From the IMG/VR virus record IMGVR_UViG_3300037069_000769, positions 1 to 64,000 of that record: DNA of 64,000 nt. The stretch is one strand, 5' to 3'. The first letter of the stretch is position 1. Each line of letters starts with the position of its first letter. Below are positions 378 through 38,752 of the stretch, piece by piece. The stretch comes from a virus. Both the position numbers and the translations under genes were made by a program. The notes beneath the pieces were generated by a model, which was given only the letters and a program-made list of their open reading frames with translations, did not search any database and was not told the origin of the DNA.

Positions 378-773
378 TTGGGTGTAAGCTTCGGGCAGAA
401 TAGAAAGTACGTAGAGCATGCCTGCCTGAAAATATGTGCCAACTGTGCGAACTGTGCGAACTGTGCAAACTGTGCAAACTGTGCAAACTGTGCAAACTGT
501 GCAAACTGTGCCAACTGTGCGAACTGTGCGAACTGTGCGAACTGTGCGAACTGTGCAAACTGTGCAAACTGTGCAAACTGTGCAAACTGTGCAAACTGTG
601 CGAACTGTGCAAACTGTGCAAACTGTGCAAACTGTGCCAACTGTGCCAACTGTGCGAACTGTTGCGGGAGAAGATCAGCCTCAGAGACGCGGGATAAACC
701 TCAAACTAGATATAGTCTGAGTGTAAGCAGCATCCTGTGTGATGTTGATTTAGACTTAATTGAGTGTGCATAG
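378..773 (+). CDS. Possible Cys-Ala-Asn repeat protein
   Basis: This frame crosses the 9-bp array and would give a 131-aa protein with 25 consecutive Cys-Ala-Asn triplets (about residues 20-94) and a short C-terminal tail. The only variable base of the array is the third base of the Ala codon, so all variants are silent here and non-silent in the other frames. Against it: the only upstream start is a TTG at 378 without a clear ribosome binding site, and all three + frames are open. No family is recognised. Confidence 0.3.
   Translation: MGVSFGQNRKYVEHACLKICANCANCANCANCANCANCANCANCANCANCANCANCANCANCANCANCANCANCANCANCANCANCANCANCANCCGRRSASETRDKPQTRYSLSVSSILCDVDLDLIECA
435..659 (+). repeat. 25-copy 9-bp tandem array
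   Basis: Exactly 25 units of TGTGCNAAC, where N is C, G or A (4, 8 and 13 copies); the other eight bases never vary. Variants occur in runs (C,G,G,A5; C,G4,A5; G,A3,C,C,G), so larger blocks were duplicated. The A-type unit contains TGCAAAC, which is one half of the dispersed TGCAAACGTTTGCA palindrome. There are no spacers, so it is not a CRISPR. Confidence 0.95.
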
Positions 774-2304: not shown

Positions 2305-2333
2305 TTGACATTGCGATAAACGTATGCTATAAT
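2305..2333 (+). promoter_or_regulatory. Sigma-70 promoter for the small-protein array
   Basis: TTGACA (2305-2310), 17-bp spacer, TATAAT (2328-2333): a full consensus match. Transcription would start near 2340, which is the ATG of the next small frame, so that message may be leaderless. Confidence 0.88.
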
Positions 2334-2339
2334 TACACT

Positions 2340-2405
2340 ATGGGCCCGATTACCCGAAAAACTAGCTTCCAAGATCAGATAGATTTTCTTCGGTTGGAAC
2401 AATGA
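2340..2405 (+). CDS. 21-aa leader or remnant peptide
   Basis: ATG lies at the predicted transcription start and the stop overlaps the next ATG as ATGA. The end, F-Q-D-Q-I-D-F-L-R-L-E, resembles the C-terminal signature of the paralogous family that follows (Q-E-E-F-L-x-x-E), so this may be the tail of a lost copy, retained as a coupled leader. Confidence 0.4.
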   Translation: MGPITRKTSFQDQIDFLRLEQ

Positions 2406-2608
2406 CTGGATTCAAGTTTAAGGTCGGAGATGCTGTTACTATCTCGGGAGGAATTTACATCATCTTAGACATTTATACCGAGATAAACGGGTTCATCAAA
2501 TGGCATGTTATGGGGTGTAGAACTGGAAAGCTTACTACGTGGATGCCCCATATCTACGAGTGTAGGCTGGTAGATCAAGAAGAATTTCTCAACATTGAGA
2601 ACGGGTGA
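2402..2608 (+). CDS. Small paralogous array protein 1
   Basis: 68 aa. It shows the family layout seen through 6756: an N-terminal [FL]-x-V-G-D motif (residues 5-9), a hydrophobic strand (here IIILDI-like, about 19-25), a variable middle, and a C-terminal D-Q-E-E-F-L-x-I-E motif. The pattern of short strands around a G-D turn suggests a small beta-barrel (SH3- or KOW-like), but that is inference. The start overlaps the leader peptide stop as ATGA, which implies translational coupling. Function unknown. Confidence 0.8.
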   Translation: MTGFKFKVGDAVTISGGIYIILDIYTEINGFIKWHVMGCRTGKLTTWMPHIYECRLVDQEEFLNIENG

Positions 2609-2622
2609 TGCGTGGTTGACCG

Positions 2623-2886
2623 ATGAGTTACCTTCCTTACGATTTGAAGTTGCGTGAGCTTTTTGAGGTGGGCGACGTAGTGATCTTGGGTAAAGGGTTA
2701 CTACTGATAGTAGATTGTTTCTACGATCCTCTAACCACTGGGCAATTTTGTGTGGTTGACAGTACGGACGGCAGACGTGGGGATGTATGGCCTCCCGCTC
2801 AATCCGAGTATCGGACTATCGCCCAAGAGATATTCCTTCAAGTTGAGACAGAGTTGGATAGGGTAAGTGCGTTGGGAGTTAGGTAG
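2623..2886 (+). CDS. Small paralogous array protein 2
   Basis: 87 aa with F-E-V-G-D-V-V near residue 14, the strand LLLIVD, and C-terminal A-Q-E-I-F-L-Q-V-E followed by an extra 14-residue tail. Starts 14 nt after protein 1. Member of the same tandem family; function unknown. Confidence 0.8.
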   Translation: MSYLPYDLKLRELFEVGDVVILGKGLLLIVDCFYDPLTTGQFCVVDSTDGRRGDVWPPAQSEYRTIAQEIFLQVETELDRVSALGVR

Positions 2887-3134
2887 TGCAAACGTTTGCA
2901 AAAGACCTTAAAGTCGGCGACGTCGTACACTTCCCATCTCTTGCCAAAGACGGCAGTGTATTGTGGCTCGTTGTTGACATTGCCATCACCCAGTCTCTCG
3001 CGGGAAGACGTGTCTGGACACTGTTTTCCGGAATTCACTCACTGAATGTTACCGCTGTTGATCGTCTCACCGCCATATACGACTTAGTACCTCAAGAAGC
3101 TTTCCTGCTGGCGGAGAATCAGTATGCCGGTTAG
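2886..3134 (+). CDS. Small paralogous array protein 3
   Basis: 82 aa, GTG start overlapping the previous TAG by one base. The dispersed palindrome covers the first codons, so the protein begins M-Q-T-F-A-K before the family motif L-K-V-G-D-V-V. It has LVVDI and the C-terminal P-Q-E-A-F-L-L-A-E. Because the palindrome encodes the N terminus here, it would control this start directly if it binds a protein. Confidence 0.8.
   Translation: MQTFAKDLKVGDVVHFPSLAKDGSVLWLVVDIAITQSLAGRRVWTLFSGIHSLNVTAVDRLTAIYDLVPQEAFLLAENQYAG
2887..2900. repeat. TGCAAACGTTTGCA dispersed palindrome
   Basis: Perfect copy overlapping the GTG start at 2886. Confidence 0.95.
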
Positions 3135-3146
3135 GTGTCTTGATGA

Positions 3147-3245
3147 AGTGACAGTGGAACACCTGCTGACGCAGTTGCTTGGGACTACCCGTACACCGTA
3201 ATCCCACAAGAAGAGTTCATTGGTCAAGAAAATGCTGGATATTAA
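3147..3245 (+). pseudogene. Decayed array member (C-terminal half only)
   Basis: The frame reads ...V-I-P-Q-E-E-F-I-G-Q-E-N-A-G-Y-stop, the family C-terminal signature, but the N-terminal half with the V-G-D motif is missing and stops occur just upstream (3132, 3141, 3144). It lies between intact members at the place where a full gene would be expected, and overlaps the start of the next member. Confidence 0.6.
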
Positions 3246-3477
3246 GGTGGGAGACTGTTTTGCGGTATCCGGGTTAGCGTACGGTTCTGATGGAACTCCC
3301 AAGGTTGAGGTGGTTGTAGTTCTTGAGGTTTACACCGTAGCGGGGCGGATTGTGCGGTTAAAGACTGATCGAGCAGACGGTCAGCGTGTGAACTTCGCTC
3401 CTACTGGCGTTGCTCTTAGATCGATCCCTCAGAAAACGTTTTTGTCAGAGGAACGCTGTGAAGCCCGAAGACATTAA
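3232..3477 (+). CDS. Small paralogous array protein 4
   Basis: 81 aa from the ATG at 3232, chosen over a TTG at 3220 because it places the family motif I-K-V-G-D at residues 4-8. A long V-V-V-V-L-E-V strand and P-Q-K-T-F-L-S-E-E near the C terminus follow. It ends inside the next member. Function unknown. Confidence 0.78.
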   Translation: MLDIKVGDCFAVSGLAYGSDGTPKVEVVVVLEVYTVAGRIVRLKTDRADGQRVNFAPTGVALRSIPQKTFLSEERCEARRH

Positions 3478-3676
3478 AGTCGGGATGACCGTGAGACTGA
3501 CTAGCTCTCGACTGGCTTTAGTGCTTGAAATTTTTACAGGGCATTACGGAGAGATGCGAGCAGAGGTGCGTACTCCGGGAGGACTGCTAGGGAACTGTTC
3601 TCTCACTGATATAGTTGAGCAGCATTCTCAGCAGGAGTACCTTGAGGTAGAAGGCCGTTGGAATAACGATACTTAG
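3458..3676 (+). CDS. Small paralogous array protein 5
   Basis: 72 aa, GTG start overlapping the previous gene by 20 nt. It has I-K-V-G-M-T-V at residues 6-12 (the usual D is M), the strand LALVLEI, and Q-Q-E-Y-L-E-V-E near the end. The start is inferred from alignment with the family. Confidence 0.72.
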   Translation: MKPEDIKVGMTVRLTSSRLALVLEIFTGHYGEMRAEVRTPGGLLGNCSLTDIVEQHSQQEYLEVEGRWNNDT

Positions 3677-3682
3677 GAAATT

Positions 3683-3696
3683 TGCAAACGTTTGCA
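3683..3696. repeat. TGCAAACGTTTGCA dispersed palindrome
   Basis: Perfect copy ending 1 nt before the ATG at 3698. Confidence 0.95.
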
Positions 3697-3697
3697 C

Positions 3698-3931
3698 ATG
3701 ACGTATCGGTCCATGAAATTCGCTGATGACTTCCAGCCGGGAGATGTGTTCTACACTGAGGATGAACTCTGCTTAGTAGTAGATACTCAGATACCTTCAG
3801 GAGACAAGGATTACTTCATCAAGCTGTGGGTGGTAAGCTCGATTGGAAACTGCCTAACTGTTGAGTACGATATAGCTACTTTGGTGGAAGTTCGGAGCCA
3901 AGAGGAATTCCTTAATGCAGAAAACTCCTGA
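3698..3931 (+). CDS. Small paralogous array protein 6
   Basis: 77 aa. F-Q-P-G-D-V-F near residue 13, LCLVVD strand, and S-Q-E-E-F-L-N-A-E at the C terminus, the cleanest copy of the family signature. The palindrome occupies the place where a ribosome binding site would be, so either this start is weak or translation is coupled to the gene before it. Confidence 0.8.
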   Translation: MTYRSMKFADDFQPGDVFYTEDELCLVVDTQIPSGDKDYFIKLWVVSSIGNCLTVEYDIATLVEVRSQEEFLNAENS

Positions 3932-4073
3932 CCAATTTGTGCCCGGAGACGTGTTTGAATTTTCTCCCGGAAGTGTAGACACCCTGTATTGCGTATTAGT
4001 GCTTAATATATCTAGCACTAATGGAACTAAAAAAATCAATAAATTTTGTAATAAATTTATTGATTTTAGATAA
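3915..4073 (+). pseudogene. 5' part of array member split by an insert
   Basis: Begins like the other members (F-V-P-G-D-V-F at residues 8-14 and CVLVLNI), then runs into AT-rich DNA and stops at 4071. The missing C-terminal half, with E-P-E-E-F-L-R-I-E, is found in frame 0.75 kb downstream (4766-4870). The start overlaps the end of protein 6, as is usual in this operon. If the insert is removed from the RNA the gene is intact; otherwise it is broken. Confidence 0.6.
4032..4067. repeat. 15-bp AT-rich inverted repeat
   Basis: Arms 4032-4046 and 4053-4067 are perfect reverse complements with a 6-nt loop, near the left end of the insert. Confidence 0.8.
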
Positions 4074-4084
4074 ATTTAATTACG
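4052..4084 (+). repeat. 33-bp flanking repeat, left copy
   Basis: Nearly identical to 4467-4499; both contain TTTAGATAAATTTA followed by TTACG, and each can fold on itself (TAAATTTAT/ATAAATTTA). The two copies bracket the 105-aa gene. Confidence 0.75.
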
Positions 4085-4130
4085 CAAGCACCCAAGATAA
4101 ACCCGCATCATCAATATAAAGGAAGAAAAC

Positions 4131-4448
4131 ATGAAACTTACAATACGAAAATGCGAACTCACGGGCGCTGGGTGGTATATAATCGAACGAGCCGTGCCGA
4201 GATGGACGGTAGAAAATGGAGAGCGGTTTTCTGATGCTGATGTTGAGGGCAGGGGAGCGGAAATGCTTGCAATTGCTGACGCTATTAAAAATCGAGGGCA
4301 TGTGGCATTTCGAAGATGTGCGGTAAATGTCGTCAATGAACGAGTTTTCTTTTGGAGTCCGAGGAATAGTTCCCACTATGGTGAATGCAATCTCTCGGAA
4401 GCGGACGAATTGGCAGAACTCATTTTGAACACTGTCCCTCCAAGGTAA
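4131..4448 (+). CDS. Hypothetical protein inside the insert
   Basis: 105 aa with a strong ribosome binding site (AAGGAAG) 7 nt before the ATG. I do not recognise it: there is no HNH, GIY-YIG or LAGLIDADG motif that would mark a homing endonuclease. It is charged, with a central helix-like stretch (EMLAIADAIKN) and several Cys and Trp residues, and sits between direct repeats within the element that splits an array gene. Confidence 0.6.
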   Translation: MKLTIRKCELTGAGWYIIERAVPRWTVENGERFSDADVEGRGAEMLAIADAIKNRGHVAFRRCAVNVVNERVFFWSPRNSSHYGECNLSEADELAELILNTVPPR

Positions 4449-4466
4449 CACTCAAACAACTTGTAG

Positions 4467-4499
4467 TAAATTTATCGTATTTAGATAAATTTACTTACG
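4467..4499 (+). repeat. 33-bp flanking repeat, right copy
   Basis: Right-hand partner of 4052-4084, starting 19 nt after the stop of the 105-aa gene; contains the perfect inverted repeat TAAATTTATC/GATAAATTTA. Confidence 0.75.
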
Positions 4500-4732
4500 T
4501 CTGCACAACAGGTGATTGTCCCGCTAATCAATTTCCTAAAATTAGTCATCCCCTTGAGAATGTAACATTCAAACTCAATGGAAAACCAAATGAAAACTGG
4601 ATTGCGACAGGCGATTGCACGGAGGTGTATCAACGTAGGCTACAGGATAGCTATGTATCTGGCTGTTGATTAGTCATCCCTTTGTTACATCAATTCAAAC
4701 CGTTTTCGGTAAGGGATAGAGTCTATAAAGAC

Positions 4733-4783
4733 AGCAAGACCACGCACGGTATCAATTTTATTTAATACCGCGTTGGTCTTTGC
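4733..4783 (+). repeat. Long imperfect hairpin near the insert end
   Basis: CAAGACCA...TGGTCTTTG, CGC...GCG and GGTAT...ATACC form a roughly 16-bp stem with small bulges. It is not followed by a T-run. A peripheral helix of an intron RNA is possible. Confidence 0.5.
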
Positions 4784-4870
4784 CATAATCTATCCATTAC
4801 TATCCTGCGGGAGCCCGAAGAATTTTTACGCATCGAGCTTGAGAATAGTCTTTACTTTGATGTCTACTGA
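4766..4870 (+). pseudogene. 3' part of the split array member
   Basis: In-frame sequence ending with R-E-P-E-E-F-L-R-I-E-L-E, the family C-terminal signature, and a stop whose last base is the A of the next ATG, the same junction style as other members. The preserved junction argues that this half was functional until recently or still is through splicing. Confidence 0.6.
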
Positions 4871-5127
4871 TGATAAAAACTTCAGATGAGATACGGCCCG
4901 GAGACGTGTTCTGGCATCCCCGAGGGGAATTCTATATGGTACTGGAGTATACCCGCGAAGACTTAAGTGGCCCTTGGGCAGATGGCATACCTGACGTGTT
5001 GGGAACTGCTCACGTACAGTACGAGACAGGCGAAATAAACGAGACTCTGTACTTCACTTCTAATAGAGTTTACACGTTTCCCCAGCTTATCTTCCTCGAA
5101 GCAGAATCTGCAAACGTTTGCAAATGA
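4870..5127 (+). CDS. Small paralogous array protein 8
   Basis: 85 aa. I-R-P-G-D-V-F at residues 8-14, the strand MVLEY, a longer and more acidic middle, then F-P-Q-L-I-F-L-E-A-E. The palindrome near the 3' end encodes the last residues (A-N-V-C). The stop overlaps the next ATG. Confidence 0.8.
   Translation: MIKTSDEIRPGDVFWHPRGEFYMVLEYTREDLSGPWADGIPDVLGTAHVQYETGEINETLYFTSNRVYTFPQLIFLEAESANVCK
5109..5122. repeat. TGCAAACGTTTGCA dispersed palindrome
   Basis: Perfect copy at the end of one array gene, ending 1 nt before the ATG of the next at 5124. Confidence 0.95.
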
Positions 5128-5345
5128 GTAGAATTGTCTCCAAATTTTCTGAGTTGTGTCCGGGTGACTGCATTCACCTAATTAAGTTTGACGTTTGGGC
5201 CGTAGTTATATCTCCGCACTTCAAGTTCGATGGACGTATTGATGCCGTGCTGGCTATGAACGGCGGTGGGGGCATCGATACTGTTTGTGAAACGATAACT
5301 TGGGAAGTAGTTCCGCAAGTCGAATTCCTTAGACGAGAAGGATAA
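5124..5345 (+). CDS. Small paralogous array protein 9
   Basis: 73 aa. L-C-P-G-D-C-I near residue 11, WAVVI strand, glycine-rich turn (GGGG), and V-P-Q-V-E-F-L-R-R-E at the C terminus. ATG at 5124 preferred over the upstream TTG because it overlaps the previous stop as ATGA. Confidence 0.8.
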   Translation: MSRIVSKFSELCPGDCIHLIKFDVWAVVISPHFKFDGRIDAVLAMNGGGGIDTVCETITWEVVPQVEFLRREG

Positions 5346-5348
5346 ACG

Positions 5349-5759
5349 ATGAGCTTAGAGTTAATCGAAACCTGTATGAAGGATTATCCACTGCATACTC
5401 CTGACTGCGTGATTAAGTTTAGAGAAACTCATGCCATCTTTATCGGGTGGTTTTCCCGAGGTGACGGGTTCACGCAGCGAAAGGAGTCTGACTTATTGGA
5501 ATTGCAGATTGAGGGGCAAACTTGCTACATTAACTCAATTCAACTACAGCGTGAGAATTGTGGTGTAGGGTTGGGGTATGCCCTTTATATGAAAGCTGAG
5601 GAAATAGCTCGGGCACTCAAATGTACTTCTATGCAGATGACGCCTTCAGGTTGGGTATTAGGTGCTGGGGAGAATGCGGGCGAGACTAGGATGGACTATT
5701 GCATTCGGAAACTCCGATATTGGCAGATTTCGGAGTGGGAGGTATGCAAGAGATTATGA
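5349..5759 (+). CDS. GNAT-like N-acetyltransferase
   Basis: 136 aa. The stretch R-E-N-C-G-V-G-L-G-Y-A-L-Y (about residues 74-86) fits the acetyl-CoA-binding motif A of GNAT enzymes (R/Q-x-x-G-x-G/A), with I-N-S-I-Q-L before it as the usual preceding strand. The C-terminal half is short, so the enzyme is near the minimal GNAT size. It sits inside the small-protein array with close spacing on both sides; the acceptor is unknown and could be an array protein. Confidence 0.6.
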   Translation: MSLELIETCMKDYPLHTPDCVIKFRETHAIFIGWFSRGDGFTQRKESDLLELQIEGQTCYINSIQLQRENCGVGLGYALYMKAEEIARALKCTSMQMTPSGWVLGAGENAGETRMDYCIRKLRYWQISEWEVCKRL

Positions 5760-6028
5760 GTGGGAGCCCCCTAGCAGAACGGCTATGGTTATCTGAGATG
5801 CCTATAGGCCAAGCTTTCCTAAGACACGGTTCGCACGTTAGTATGTGGCTACTGCTTGACTGGCACATAACGTTTGACAGGTATTGGGCAGTGATAGTTC
5901 CTTGGAATGACCCCAAGGGTTGGACGTGCATGTCTAACGAGATGTACGATCTGGTATCGGCTGAAGAGTTGATAGCCTACGAGCGTGCAGCGGATGGGCT
6001 CCACTTAATCGCTGAGATAACGCTATGA
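5756..6028 (+). CDS. Divergent array family protein
   Basis: 90 aa from the ATG overlapping the GNAT stop (ATGA). The ending S-A-E-E-L-I-A-Y-E and the strand YWAVIVPW match the family pattern weakly, and the V-G-D motif is not evident. Probably a diverged member; function unknown. Confidence 0.62.
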   Translation: MSGSPLAERLWLSEMPIGQAFLRHGSHVSMWLLLDWHITFDRYWAVIVPWNDPKGWTCMSNEMYDLVSAEELIAYERAADGLHLIAEITL

Positions 6029-6273
6029 GTGTTCCGTCTACAGACTGGCCTTTGCGGATGCAAAATGCTGTACAGCTACAGATTGGGGATGTGTTATATA
6101 GGGCGTTGAACCTTAACCTGATTTACGAAGTTCAGCACAGTGAGTACCTCATTAAGTTATGGGCATTCTCTCCGGAGCATTCTCATCGCTGTTTTGAGCT
6201 ACCTCACTTAGATCGGGTGGAAGTGCACACGCAAGAAGAGTTTTTACACTGCGAGAAAACATGGGGCTTGTAA
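6025..6273 (+). CDS. Small paralogous array protein 10
   Basis: 82 aa. L-Q-I-G-D-V-L near residue 20, a LIYEV strand, K-L-W-A-F as in protein 6 (K-L-W-V-V), and T-Q-E-E-F-L-H-C-E at the C terminus. ATGA overlap with the preceding gene. Confidence 0.8.
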   Translation: MSVPSTDWPLRMQNAVQLQIGDVLYRALNLNLIYEVQHSEYLIKLWAFSPEHSHRCFELPHLDRVEVHTQEEFLHCEKTWGL

Positions 6274-6494
6274 TTCGGGTCAAGGATATAAAACCGGGTG
6301 ACTGTGTTCGGCTGGGAGATATGCACTATTTTCTTGTAGTAGATGTGCGGAAATTACCTAGGACAACAGAGCTTATCGGAGAGACCGCAGCTACTTGGAT
6401 GTATAACACCCAAACCCCCGAGTACGTGCCTCCCGAAGAATTTCTAAAGTATGGACGCATGATTGAGAAGGTGACTGATGGGACACATTCCTGA
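6261..6494 (+). CDS. Small paralogous array protein 11
   Basis: 77 aa. I-K-P-G-D-C-V at residues 10-16, the strand YFLVVDV, and V-P-P-E-E-F-L-K-Y followed by a 16-residue tail. Overlaps the previous gene by 13 nt and the next by 17 nt. Confidence 0.8.
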   Translation: MGLVIRVKDIKPGDCVRLGDMHYFLVVDVRKLPRTTELIGETAATWMYNTQTPEYVPPEEFLKYGRMIEKVTDGTHS

Positions 6495-6756
6495 AGCCTA
6501 CGAAGAAAATTTCATTCCCGTTACTAAGTTAGTGGCCGGGAATGTGATCCTCTACTTAGGCAAGGTCCACCTTGTTTTGAACGCGGGCAGAGGTGTTAGA
6601 CGTCGTGACTCCGGCAACTATCTCTGCGTGACCTTACAACTTCAATGTGAGGTCAGGTATGAGGTACAGATCGAGTTGGGCAACCGATTTCAAATCCTTC
6701 CTGACGAAGTGTTCATCGAGGCCGAGCGTACCGGGAACTGGGAATACAGGGTATGA
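6478..6756 (+). CDS. Small paralogous array protein 12
   Basis: 92 aa. L-V-A-G-N-V-I takes the place of the V-G-D motif, followed by VHLVLNAG and, near the C terminus, L-P-D-E-V-F-I-E-A-E. It is the last family member; a new promoter follows it. Confidence 0.75.
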   Translation: MGHIPEAYEENFIPVTKLVAGNVILYLGKVHLVLNAGRGVRRRDSGNYLCVTLQLQCEVRYEVQIELGNRFQILPDEVFIEAERTGNWEYRV

Positions 6757-6768
6757 GTAGTCTACCCC

Positions 6769-6797
6769 TTGACGCCGCGAAGTTTCCTTGATATACT
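6769..6797 (+). promoter_or_regulatory. Sigma-70 promoter
   Basis: TTGACG (6769-6774), 17 bp, TATACT (6792-6797). It would transcribe the genes from 6830. Confidence 0.8.
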
Positions 6798-35351: not shown

Positions 35352-35990
35352 ATGACTGAAGATGTGATTAAACCACTTCACGAACTGTTGGAGTCGGTAA
35401 GCCGTAGGGACATTGACGAGACACCTGCGGAAAAGAAGTTGCGGGAGCTTAAAAGTCTCCCTGATGACGATAAGTACGCTAAGGTGTTTGAGTTAAAGAT
35501 GCGAGGGGTGCCGGCAAGCTCCATATCCCGCATCTTTGATGTCGATACTAGCACCGTTCATAGATGGCTTCGACAGTACGCTGAGAGTTACCGTACGCGG
35601 ATCGAGCAGGAACCTGCTGCCAACATCATCGCCGAGTCTATGCAATTCCTTAACGCAATTGAGGAGTTGTGTTTATATGAGGTCGATCAAATTACTACTG
35701 AGGAAACCCGCACTGACCCTAAGACGGGTGAGGTACTACGGGTAACTTCGGTTCAAAGTAATGGGGTGAAGGTAAAGTACATCCAATCTGTCCTTAAGGC
35801 TCGTCAGATGATGTTGGACCTACTGGTTCAAACTGGCGTACTGCCGAGGGAGAGTTCTGATATGTACAAACGCATGGAAGCTGAGAAGAAGATCGATGAG
35901 ACTGATTTGAGTAAGGTTGCTGATGCCACCTCTCGTGAGGAATTGGAACGGCGACTTGTTGAAGCTTTAAGTAAGGATATGAAGCTGTAA
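35352..35990 (+). CDS. Terminase small subunit-like HTH protein
   Basis: 212 aa from ATG 35352. G-V-P-A-S-S-I-S-R-I-F-D-V-D-T-S-T-V-H-R (about 51-70) is a helix-turn-helix, followed by a helical region and a coiled C terminus, as in DNA-recognition subunits of terminases. It directly precedes the large subunit with a 1-nt overlap, which supports the role. Confidence 0.72.
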   Translation: MTEDVIKPLHELLESVSRRDIDETPAEKKLRELKSLPDDDKYAKVFELKMRGVPASSISRIFDVDTSTVHRWLRQYAESYRTRIEQEPAANIIAESMQFLNAIEELCLYEVDQITTEETRTDPKTGEVLRVTSVQSNGVKVKYIQSVLKARQMMLDLLVQTGVLPRESSDMYKRMEAEKKIDETDLSKVADATSREELERRLVEALSKDMKL

Positions 35991-38752
35991 TGTTTGAGCA
36001 CCTTCCTGCTACATCAGCCGCTGGGGAAATGCTGTCTGGACTAACAGATCAGCAAGTCAAACGACTCACTAAGTTGTTAGACATTCGACGAGCCCGCATC
36101 ACGTTTGCTACTGAGCATCATGTGAATACTCGCGGGGATCGAATGGACTTTGCTCATTATCCTCATATCAAGGCTCTGTACAATAGTTTGGCCTCGACTA
36201 TCGTATTGCAGGGCTCAGTTCAAAGTTTCAAGGCCCAACCTCTAACCGCCAAGGTTCATACGCCTAGCGGCTGGAAACTGATGGGCGACTTGAGGGTGGG
36301 CGACACCGTAAGCACTCCTGACGGTGCAAACGCTTGCATTACTGCTGTTCAGCCTCAAGGAACTGTGAGAATCTACAAGCTCAAGTTCTCTGACGGTCGA
36401 GTAGTGGAGGCTTGTGGGGATCACCTCTGGAAAGTGCGAGGTTCGCGTAGAATCTTCAAAGCTTGTCGGGGCTTGTGTTACGATGCACCTAAAGCTTCGG
36501 AGGTTGTTGACACTAATACTATTGCTAAGAGAATGTGTTCGGGCGAACGTTTCAGCGTCCCGTTGACTTTGCCGGTGGAGAAGCCTGCAACGAGTGTTAC
36601 GCTTGATCCCTATTTTGTAGGATTGATGCTTGGTGACGGAGAACTCGGCAAGACTAACTTGCGATTCATTACTACCGAATCTGAGTTGGTGACGGCTGTA
36701 AATGCAAGTGTATATCGTTGGGGGCTGAAGCTTCAGCAGTACAAAGATACGGCCAATCATCACTTTATTCGAGGTGAGAATTCGATCTCTAATCTGGGGG
36801 CTCAGTTGCTCCGAGATCAGTTTGAGAAGTTAAGGTTGCTTGGGACCGATAGCTTTTCAAAGTTTATTCCCGCCTCGTATAAGGAAGGGTCTATTGAGCA
36901 GAGACTCGCATTACTGCAAGGTTTGATGGATACTGACGGCGTTACGGGTTCAACTGAGATTCGCATTTCGTCGAAGCAGTTGGCTCTTGACATTCAGGAG
37001 ATTGTGTGGTCATTGGGAGGAGTTGCGTCGATTACTCCGCGTGAGACGTACTACACGAAAGAGGGTGGTAAGGTTGCGGGAGCGACTTCGTTTATCGTAG
37101 CAATCTCCCACCCACACCCCAGCATGCTTTACCGTCTGACGAGTAAGCGGGCTGCTGTGTCCGACGACCACCGTCGAACTGACACAATGGGGCCGACGAT
37201 TGAGGAGATTATCTGTGTAGGTGAAAAGCCTGCTCAATGTATTGTTCTCGATCATCCCGAGCATTTGTATCTGACAGATGGGTACACGGTTACCCATAAT
37301 AGTGAATGGGCAGTAATCGACCATTTTGCGGCAGCCTTTACCGGGCTGTCGGTGTTTTTTGTTGTGCCTAAGTATGAGGCCCGCACAACGTACGTTCAGA
37401 ACCGAATCAACAAGTGCGTGCAGAGTGTTCCCGAGTACAAGCGGATCATTGGGGCAGGTTTCTTTGACTCGGTGCAGATGAAGTCGTTCGGCAAAGGTTC
37501 CGTTAAATACGTCGGGTCGAACGTACTGGCTGACTTCAAAGAATACCCTGCTGATATGATCGTGGTGGAGGAGGTCGATCAGTGCGATAAGGATAATGTT
37601 GCTTACGCCAATGATCGACTGATGGCCTCACCCTATCAGTTTAAGCGTTACTTGGGTAACCCTACGCACAAAGGCAAGGGTATTAACGCTTACTTTCAGG
37701 AGTCAGATCAGCGGGAGTGGTATGTCCCGTGCATGATCTGCGGAGAGTACTCAGAGCTTGATTGGTTTAACGTGGTGGTCGAGGCGATCTTTGACAAGGA
37801 AGGTCATATCGTTGATTATCGACTTCGGGATAAGGAGTGGTCAGTCGGGTGTCGCCGAGATATTCACTTGATGTGCCCAAAATGTAGTGGGCAGTTGGAA
37901 CGTGCAAGTGACCGGGGCGAATGGAGACCTAAGAATCAGGGCCACCCTATTGAGGGTTACCATATCTCACAGCTTTGCAGCCCCATCAACTCTGTCGCAT
38001 CCATGTGGCAGGAGTTCCGAGCGTCGCTGACAGACCCAACGCGACTCCAGAAGTTCTACAACTCATATCTGGGATTGCCCTTTGAGGCTGCGGGCAATAA
38101 GATTACGTCGGAGCTTCTTGCGGCTTGCTCTGACCTCGACTACAAGTTTGTAATTCAGCCTGATTGTGCCTTTATTTCGGGAGACGGTGACGAAGGTCCA
38201 TGCAGCATGGGTGTGGACGTTGGGGGCAACTTGGATGTGCGTATCTCTCGAATTGAGAAGAACAAACGTCGTGCTGTGTATATGGGTAAAGTCAAGCACA
38301 TCGACGAAGTGTACAGTCTAATTGAGAGGTACAACGTCGAGAAGTGTGTTATCGACTCTGGGCCTGAGACGGCTTTGGTTCAGGACTTTCAAGATAACGC
38401 TACCTGCGATGTGTGGGCCTGTCGGTACGGCAGTGAGGGCTCCGATAAACGTCGTCGGTATGATACCTCTGACAAGGTGATTAGCATTGACAGAACTGAG
38501 GCGTTGGATCGCTCGTTCAGTCAAATCAGGCAGAAGAAGAACATTCTGCCCGTGAATTTCACTGAGATTTTGGACGGGCAGTACGTGTCCGAGATGTGTG
38601 ATCCTGTTCGCTCGATGGTCGAGGATGATCGGGGAAATAGTAAGTTCGAGTGGACTAAGTGTAAAGATCACCAGCGACATTGTGACACCTATGACATGCT
38701 GGCGGCTCAGTTGATTATGGAAGCAACGTTAGACGACATTTCCATTGGTTGA
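35990..38752 (+). CDS. terL: Terminase large subunit with intein
   Basis: 920 aa precursor, 564 aa after removal of the intein (residues 82-437). The spliced protein reads G-S-V-Q-S-F-K/S-E-W, a variant Walker A, so the intein sits between the P-loop Lys and Ser. Walker B-like M-I-V-V-E-E-V-D (about 523-530), a C-x-x-C pair of zinc-like motifs (C-M-I-C and C-P-K-C) and a nuclease-like region (M-G-V-D-V-G-G, V-I-D-S-G-P-E, H-C-D-T-Y-D-M) follow. This is the GpA-like (phage lambda) family that cuts and pumps DNA into heads. Confidence 0.92.
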   Translation: MFEHLPATSAAGEMLSGLTDQQVKRLTKLLDIRRARITFATEHHVNTRGDRMDFAHYPHIKALYNSLASTIVLQGSVQSFKAQPLTAKVHTPSGWKLMGDLRVGDTVSTPDGANACITAVQPQGTVRIYKLKFSDGRVVEACGDHLWKVRGSRRIFKACRGLCYDAPKASEVVDTNTIAKRMCSGERFSVPLTLPVEKPATSVTLDPYFVGLMLGDGELGKTNLRFITTESELVTAVNASVYRWGLKLQQYKDTANHHFIRGENSISNLGAQLLRDQFEKLRLLGTDSFSKFIPASYKEGSIEQRLALLQGLMDTDGVTGSTEIRISSKQLALDIQEIVWSLGGVASITPRETYYTKEGGKVAGATSFIVAISHPHPSMLYRLTSKRAAVSDDHRRTDTMGPTIEEIICVGEKPAQCIVLDHPEHLYLTDGYTVTHNSEWAVIDHFAAAFTGLSVFFVVPKYEARTTYVQNRINKCVQSVPEYKRIIGAGFFDSVQMKSFGKGSVKYVGSNVLADFKEYPADMIVVEEVDQCDKDNVAYANDRLMASPYQFKRYLGNPTHKGKGINAYFQESDQREWYVPCMICGEYSELDWFNVVVEAIFDKEGHIVDYRLRDKEWSVGCRRDIHLMCPKCSGQLERASDRGEWRPKNQGHPIEGYHISQLCSPINSVASMWQEFRASLTDPTRLQKFYNSYLGLPFEAAGNKITSELLAACSDLDYKFVIQPDCAFISGDGDEGPCSMGVDVGGNLDVRISRIEKNKRRAVYMGKVKHIDEVYSLIERYNVEKCVIDSGPETALVQDFQDNATCDVWACRYGSEGSDKRRRYDTSDKVISIDRTEALDRSFSQIRQKKNILPVNFTEILDGQYVSEMCDPVRSMVEDDRGNSKFEWTKCKDHQRHCDTYDMLAAQLIMEATLDDISIG
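36233..37300 (+). other. Class 3-type intein with LAGLIDADG endonuclease
   Basis: 356 aa. First residue is Ala instead of Cys/Ser; ends V-T-H-N before Ser+1. The residues that define class 3 inteins are present: Trp two after the block B His (G-D-H-L-W, residue 147), Cys in block F (Q-C-I-V-L, residue 417), and Thr before the terminal His-Asn (435). The block B Thr is Cys here. Two LAGLIDADG helices are seen: F-V-G-L-M-L-G-D-G (about 209-217) and L-L-Q-G-L-M-D-T-D-G (about 308-317). Confidence 0.85.
36325..36338. repeat. Variant palindrome TGCAAACGCTTGCA
   Basis: One mismatch, within the intein coding sequence. Confidence 0.6.

What the first reader, a model, noticed from the sequence alone, without database searches (positions are those of the whole stretch)
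2340..6756. Tandem array of at least twelve small paralogous proteins of unknown function
Genes of 70-95 aa share an N-terminal x-x-G-D-x-[VF] turn, a L-V-[VL]-[DE] strand, and a C-terminal Q-E-E-F-L-x-x-E signature, with highly divergent middles. They are arranged head to tail with overlapping starts and stops behind one consensus promoter. Rapid divergence of a constant frame with variable centre suggests inhibitors or adaptors facing many targets, for example anti-defence proteins; that is inference.
Basis: partly seen in the sequence, partly recalled or inferred. Interest (0 to 1): 0.78.

Follow-up and report, generated by a model that had tools for sequence, protein, structure and literature searches.

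The report
Phage array of diverging SH3-like proteins
An uncultured large phage carries one early gene cluster with a dozen small, fast-diverging versions of a single barrel-shaped protein that matches no named family, most likely a set of different binders for host proteins, and a related phage has a cluster of its own in the corresponding place.

Summary
The array is real. Window 2402-6756 holds eleven intact paralogues. A twelfth, divergent one lies at 5744-6025. There are also one interrupted copy and one relict tail. Leave-one-out profiles recover 10 of 11. No Pfam, PHROG, NCBIfam, PADLOC or PDB sequence family matches convincingly. AlphaFold2 gives a confident small SH3/KOW-like barrel with a C-terminal helix (pLDDT 91.9). 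An alignment of a related phage's proteins alone gives the same fold (pLDDT 85.9). The nearest solved structures are domain I of EF-P and IF5A, but the EF-P defining features are absent. The operon starts at a perfect sigma70-type promoter with a probable leaderless 21-codon leader, and most genes overlap. A relative with 77% capsid identity carries six tandem members plus one more, in the syntenic region. The two sets separate on a tree, so the arrays probably expanded separately. No array member finds a counterpart in the other phage at E 1e-3, while 27 other genes keep a median of 43% identity. This fits fast-evolving host-directed binders (inhibitors or adaptors). Anti-defence activity remains untested inference. 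Separately, the genome carries 44 exact, evenly spaced copies of the palindrome TGCAAACGTTTGCA. Three of them lie at gene junctions inside the array.

The parts
2305..2333 (+). promoter TTGACA-17-TATAAT with TG extension, head of the array operon
   Evidence: 12 of 12 consensus match; genome-wide there are 12 such sites with at least 11 of 12, all on the + strand, all with 17-bp spacers, against about 1 in shuffled sequence
2340..2405 (+). probable leaderless 21-codon leader ORF (MGPITRKTSFQDQIDFLRLEQ), ending in an ATGA overlap with member 1
   Evidence: ATG starts 7 nt after the -10 box; the promoter at 77341 has the same layout in front of a 297-aa gene. Inference from sequence
2402..2608 (+). 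member 1 (68 aa)
   Evidence: leave-one-out E 1.5e-7
2623..2886 (+). member 2 (87 aa)
   Evidence: leave-one-out E 4.2e-7
2886..3134 (+). member 3 (82 aa, GTG start; its first codons lie in a palindrome copy)
   Evidence: leave-one-out E 5.8e-8; palindrome 2887-2900
3189..3245 (+). relict C-terminal tail of a lost member (VIPQEEFIGQENAGY)
   Evidence: weak profile match over the C-terminal motif only
3232..3477 (+). member 4 (81 aa)
   Evidence: leave-one-out E 0.0018
3458..3676 (+). member 5 (72 aa, GTG start, overlaps member 4 by 20 nt)
   Evidence: leave-one-out E 1.1e-5
3698..3931 (+). member 6 (77 aa), the member whose structure was predicted
   Evidence: leave-one-out E 9.1e-9; AlphaFold2 pLDDT 91.9, pTM 0.79
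3915..4073 (+). member 7, N-terminal half; family sequence stops near 4030
   Evidence: profile match to the first half only
4031..4802 (+). interrupting segment with an unrelated 105-aa ORF (4131-4448, own Shine-Dalgarno) and two AT-rich hairpins (about 4031-4068 and 4463-4493)
   Evidence: sequence; direct repeats 4046-4091 and 4461-4506; RNA folding z = -5.0; no Rfam intron match
4803..4869 (+). C-terminal tail of a member (LREPEEFLRIELENSLYFDVY)
   Evidence: read from sequence; profile match below threshold
4870..5127 (+). member 8 (85 aa)
   Evidence: leave-one-out E 1.3e-4
5124..5345 (+). member 9 (73 aa, ATGA overlap with member 8)
   Evidence: leave-one-out E 0.0098
5349..5759 (+). non-member in the operon, weakly acetyltransferase (GNAT)-like, 136 aa
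   Evidence: Pfam Acetyltransf_1 E 0.14, below cut-off
5744..6028 (+). divergent twelfth member (94 aa)
   Evidence: 8.5 bits with the two-phage profile, 0 of 2000 shuffles as high; full-length alignment including AEELIAYER for QEEFLxxE
6025..6273 (+). member 10 (82 aa)
   Evidence: leave-one-out E 4.1e-7
6261..6494 (+). member 11 (77 aa)
   Evidence: leave-one-out E 1.9e-5
6478..6756 (+). member 12 (92 aa), the most divergent of the eleven
   Evidence: not recovered when left out (E 3.2); included on motif, position and alignment
6769..6797 (+). next promoter (TTGACG-17-TATACT), marking the likely end of the array operon
   Evidence: 10 of 12 consensus match with TG extension
2887..2900 (.). 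copy of the genome-wide palindrome TGCAAACGTTTGCA at the member 2/3 junction
3683..3696 (.). copy of the palindrome just before member 6
5109..5122 (.). copy of the palindrome at the member 8/9 junction

Best explanation
An early operon, read by host RNA polymerase from a consensus sigma70-type promoter, makes about twelve copies of one single-domain protein: a small SH3/KOW-like barrel closed by a C-terminal helix. The barrel core and a few polar positions (G15, D16, D/E29, Q68, E75 of member 6) stay constant, and the loops and strands of the middle diverge without limit. The array grows and shrinks by duplication and loss, and it appears to have expanded separately in two related phages. The most likely use is a repertoire of host-directed binders made soon after infection: each copy's variable face binds and blocks or redirects a different host protein (defence or takeover targets), while the constant face keeps the fold or contacts a shared partner. 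Shown: the family, the operon, the predicted fold, the lineage-wise separation of the two arrays, and the faster divergence than other genes. Inferred: early timing, binding to host proteins, and the identity of any target.
For: Common profile. Confident barrel-plus-helix fold predicted from the window's members and, from an alignment without them, for the related phage's member; profile-profile probability 97.8, E 7e-13 between the two sets. Perfect promoter and overlapping genes. A second array of six tandem members plus a seventh in relative G006, in the syntenic region beyond 12 collinear genes. The two phages' members form separate groups on the tree: 1 change, shuffled mean 5.9, 0 of 500 as low. 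27 genes keep a median 43% identity between the phages, including short ones (75-80 aa at 44%), yet no array member has a BLASTP hit at E 1e-3. Variation is concentrated in the centre. One interrupted copy and one relict tail show turnover. One member domain in G006 is fused to a long C-terminal extension, as expected of a reusable binding module. Precedent: the phage counter-defence protein Nip is predicted to carry SH3-like domains (PMC11984713).
Against: No member matches any defence or anti-defence family and no neighbour is a known anti-defence gene. Separation of the two arrays on the tree has only 68-70% bootstrap support with long branches. Gene conversion within each array could mimic separate expansion. 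Mostly acidic, with no catalytic residues recognised, which does not tell binders from other roles. Several of the 17 related records show no member, but those are fragments that may not cover the region.
Confidence: 0.42

Rival explanations
1. KOW/Tudor-like nucleic-acid or ribosome binders: the copies act on translation or RNA, as the EF-P/IF5A domain-I likeness suggests, and paralogues differ in RNA or tRNA preference.
For: All top PDB fold matches for the window member are EF-P or IF5A domain I (TM 0.59-0.70 by query in the top ranks, best E 1.7e-3), and EF-P and IF5A also dominate for the relative's member.
Against: Fold-match E-values stay above 0.001 and sequence profiles find no EF-P. 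Most members are acidic (pI 4.0-6.1 for ten of eleven in the window). The loop that carries the functional Lys/Arg in EF-P (KPGKGQA, PMC11611912) is the hypervariable part here, with no conserved basic tip. EF-P domains II and III are absent.
Confidence: 0.22
2. The paralogues are subunits of one hetero-oligomeric assembly (SH3-like barrels often form rings or stacks), with the constant C-terminal helix as the shared interface.
For: Twelve co-expressed, translationally coupled genes; strongly conserved helix positions Q68, F71, E75 in 15-17 of 18 members over both phages.
Against: Subunits of a fixed assembly would be expected to keep orthologues between related phages, but the two arrays share none and differ in number.
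Confidence: 0.12
3. Rapid duplication with relaxed selection: a tolerated accordion-like array whose copies drift, with few doing anything.
For: One interrupted copy and one relict tail; high divergence.
Against: Eleven to twelve open frames keep the full fold signature at 22% median identity, which needs lasting purifying selection on each; two phages maintain arrays.
Confidence: 0.1
4. The C-terminal Q-E-E-F-L motif is conserved mainly as a coding-embedded ribosome-binding site for the next overlapping gene.
For: Before member 7 the codons for Q-E-E (CAAGAGGAA) sit at Shine-Dalgarno distance from the ATG.
Against: At most other junctions the motif is too far from the next start. The protein-level anchors Q68, F71, E75 are more conserved than the E69-E70 codons that would supply the purines, and the motif persists in G006 without EE.
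Confidence: 0.03

Closest known systems
Elongation factor P / IF5A, domain I (KOW-like, SH3-like barrel)
   Same: Predicted fold and strand order; EF-P and IF5A entries fill the top of the fold-match list.
   Different: Single domain only, no modification-site loop, added C-terminal helix, no detectable sequence similarity, acidic, in a tandem array.
Uncharacterised 60-90 aa SH3-like proteins of many tailed phages (Pantoea, Gordonia, Arthrobacter, Mycobacterium, Enterobacter phages in BFVD)
   Same: Size and fold; six BFVD matches at E below 0.001, for example A0A513ZYS8 and A0A6J5NFN5.
   Different: Sequence identity 10-22% in the matches listed; whether those phages hold tandem arrays was not tested; no PHROG family links them.
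Phage counter-defence protein Nip of the SPbeta group (inhibits SpbK)
   Same: Phage-encoded, predicted to hold SH3-like domains (PMC11984713).
   Different: 279 aa, two SH3-like domains plus an HU-like dimerisation domain; no array; no sequence comparison was made.
Lineage-specific tandem gene families in viral arms races (for example poxvirus K3L amplification; from general knowledge)
   Same: Copy-number change and fast divergence in a tandem set.
   Different: Here copies are anciently diverged (22% identity), not recent amplifications.

Membership tests
A single homologous protein family (the array itself) | Each member is found by a profile of the others | tested here: met
   10 of 11 in leave-one-out; 5744-6025 as a divergent twelfth
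A single homologous protein family (the array itself) | Same fold predicted from separate members and separate alignments | tested here: met
   Same order of elements (strand, short turn, five strands, C-terminal helix); only two members were folded
EF-P / IF5A | Domain I barrel fold | tested here: met
   Best PDB matches, TM by query up to 0.70, best E 1.7e-3; weaker for the relative's member
EF-P / IF5A | Modifiable Lys/Arg at the tip of the beta3-beta4 loop | tested here: not met
   The corresponding region is hypervariable in length and sequence with no conserved basic residue; reference loop from PMC11611912
EF-P / IF5A | One or two further OB-fold domains | tested here: not met
   Members end 1-20 residues after the barrel's C-terminal helix
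EF-P / IF5A | Detectable sequence homology | tested here: not met
   No Pfam, NCBIfam or PDB sequence match to EF-P or IF5A
Known anti-phage defence components (PADLOC) | Match to a model | tested here: not met
   Only one match at E 0.048 for one of 18 members
Anti-defence proteins | Inhibits a host defence system | not testable with these tools
   Needs expression experiments
Group I/II intron (for the interruption in member 7) | Conserved catalytic RNA core | tested here: not met
   No Rfam intron match at E up to 10; the flanking coding parts also lack the middle of the domain

The most novel reading that the evidence does not exclude
A phage-encoded binder repertoire: a tandem set of one small barrel domain, kept constant in frame and diversified in its variable face, re-expanded separately in related phages, giving each phage a battery of different host-protein inhibitors in one early operon.
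Probability: 0.3. Interest if true: 0.78.

Novelty: new variant of a known kind. Interest (0 to 1): 0.52.

Why it matters
If the copies are separate inhibitors or adaptors built on one scaffold, a single 4.4-kb operon offers twelve ready candidates against host defences or host machinery. Comparing related phages would show which faces change as targets change. It would also give a handle on the many uncharacterised SH3-like small proteins of other phages, most of which have no proposed role.

Tried and rejected
Searches for relatives outside this phage group gave none: the diverse alignments had no stretch conserved enough to scan with, member 6 alone found none, a degenerate PQEEFLxxE DNA pattern in viral contigs gave 21 loci of which none fits the profile, and thymidylate-synthase-type and portal baits led to loci without members. 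Host search through the capsid protein in 84,980 bacterial and archaeal genomes gave nothing, and neither did a G006 neighbour protein whose start looks to me like a planctomycete signature, so the host is unknown. An intron in member 7 was considered and rejected. The QEEFL motif as an embedded ribosome-binding site was rejected as a general explanation. Other 'PGD' or 'EEF'-like ORFs in the genome, for example 69522-70013, do not fit the two-phage profile. Weak matches such as NCBIfam NF053833 for one G006 member (E 0.0011, below its cut-off) were set aside.
Full report
What was checked. The window is the first 64,000 bases of a 102,321-base uncultured virus record with tailed-phage genes: a gpA-type terminase, a major capsid protein with distant matches in Vibrio and Streptomyces phages, and RecA.

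The array. Eleven ORFs between 2402 and 6756 make one family. Leaving each out in turn, the profile of the other ten finds it among 2,272 stop-to-stop ORFs of the genome at E 9e-9 to 0.0098, except for the last (6478-6753, E 3.2); the best non-members score between E 0.59 and 2.9. A twelfth ORF, 5744-6025, repeatedly came up as a top non-member. It aligns over its whole length, including AEELIAYER in place of QEEFLxxE, and none of 2000 shuffles of it scores as high with the two-phage profile (4 of 2000 with the window-only profile). One copy (3915 to 4867) is interrupted by a segment with an unrelated 105-aa ORF and two AT-rich hairpins, and the middle of its domain is missing, so this is not a clean insertion. 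A relict C-terminal tail sits at 3189-3242. Variation is highest in the middle (2.59 bits) and lower in the first barrel segment (1.92) and the C-terminal helix (1.44). Over both phages G15 is invariant (18 of 18), and D/E16 (16), D/E29 (15), Q68 (15), F71 (17) and E75 (17 of 18) are nearly so.

Operon. The promoter at 2305-2333 matches the sigma70 consensus in 12 of 12 positions with a 17-bp spacer and a TG extension. The genome has twelve such sites with 11 or 12 matches, all on the + strand and all with 17-bp spacers, against about one in shuffled sequence, so these are very probably real promoters and host-type. An ATG lies 7 nt after the -10 box, opening a 21-codon leader that ends in an ATGA overlap with member 1. 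The promoter at 77341 has the same layout in front of a 297-aa gene, which suggests leaderless translation in this phage. Most junctions overlap by 1 to 20 nt. The next promoter starts 13 nt after the last stop codon. That the operon is expressed early is an inference from the promoter type.

Fold. AlphaFold2 on member 6 with the eleven-sequence alignment gives pLDDT 91.9 and pTM 0.79, though two of the five models were poor (about 60): a five-strand barrel with a short first strand and a C-terminal helix. For a member of the related phage, with an alignment that contains no sequence of the window, the same order of elements comes out at pLDDT 85.9. Six viral models match at E below 0.001, all unnamed small phage proteins or parts of larger ones. 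No sequence library gives a family.

Relatives. Seventeen records share a capsid protein 71-78% identical. Profile searches of 16 of them find the family in one, G006 (104,668 bases): six tandem members at about 100.4-103 kb and one at 13.3 kb. Twelve genes before the array are collinear between the two phages (G000 85.5-98.0 kb and G006 about 84.7-98.3 kb). The G000 array then follows across the ends of its record if the genome is circular or permuted, which I infer and did not test. The other records are shorter and may not reach the region. On a tree of 18 members the two phages separate with one change (shuffled mean 5.9, 0 of 500 as low), but with only about 70% support and long branches. 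Between the phages 27 genes keep a median identity of 43%, among them short proteins of 75-80 aa at 44%, while no array member has a BLASTP hit at E 1e-3. Profile comparison still links the two sets (probability 97.8, E 7e-13). Arrays in the same place, with members that diverge faster than the rest of the genome and that group by phage, are what repeated duplication under changing selection would leave; gene conversion within each phage is the alternative.

Function. The pattern fits a set of host-directed binders best: small, single-domain, mostly acidic, co-expressed from a host-type promoter, constant in frame and free in the middle, fast in turnover. The EF-P likeness raises a translation or RNA role. 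Against it stand the acidic charge, the missing OB domains and the fact that the loop which carries the functional residue in EF-P (PMC11611912) is the least conserved part here. A mixed oligomer is possible but would be expected to keep orthologues. Nothing here tests anti-defence activity, and I keep it as one possibility within the binder reading.

Verdict. The family is unnamed, the fold is known, and tandem small early genes in phages are a known kind of thing; separate expansion in two relatives and the strength of the divergence are the unusual part.

Another feature of this genome may deserve its own look. The 14-bp palindrome TGCAAACGTTTGCA occurs 44 times exactly in 102 kb, with 9 further copies at one mismatch and none at two. 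Spacing is far more even than chance (CV 0.49 against 0.97, 0 of 5000 random sets as low), and 26 of 44 copies lie near gene starts against about 7 expected. One related record has 4 copies in 11.4 kb and the other 15 searched have none. Three copies lie at junctions inside the array. From general knowledge the core looks like a LacI/PurR-family operator; no such regulator was identified here.

Noticed in passing
44 sites over the 102-kb record, for example window 999, 2004, 2887, 3683, 5109, 8403, 9571; also L017 at 3972, 6343, 9658, 10790: Exact palindrome TGCAAACGTTTGCA, 44 copies (33 in the window with up to one mismatch against 0.01 expected), evenly spaced about every 2.35 kb (CV 0.49), enriched near gene starts; a spectrum of 44, 9 and 0 copies at 0, 1 and 2 mismatches points to strong selection. 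Dispersed operator or segregation-type site, binder unknown.
   Followed up: partly
window 435-662: 25 tandem copies of the 9-mer TGTGCAAAC, which contains TGCAAAC, the half-site of the palindrome; it lies upstream of a 1.6-kb repeat-rich stretch without clear genes in front of the array, resembling iterons.
   Followed up: partly
window 35990-38752: The large terminase gene is split by an intein-like insert (VHTPSG... to ...YTVTHNS) with a weak LAGLIDADG match.
   Followed up: no
G000 2340 and 77376: Start codons 7 nt after perfect or near-perfect -10 boxes suggest leaderless transcripts in this phage.
   Followed up: partly
window 4031-4802: Segment interrupting one array member: 105-aa ORF with its own Shine-Dalgarno, flanked by two perfect AT-rich hairpins inside an 83% identical 46-nt direct repeat; strongly structured RNA (z -5.0), no Rfam match. 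One viral contig (L084) encodes a protein similar over the first 39 residues.
   Followed up: partly
L036 16438-16749: In the relative's array a non-member gene starts MRFTTMKFSIRDIFWFTLCTSMVI, which resembles from memory a start common in Planctomycetes proteins; a search of bacterial and archaeal genomes found no relative.
   Followed up: partly
L003 2982-3500 (record 66982-67500): A protein that looks like a macro domain (ADP-ribose binding) by its GxxxxxxxDIIAHGCN pattern; not tested against a library.
   Followed up: no
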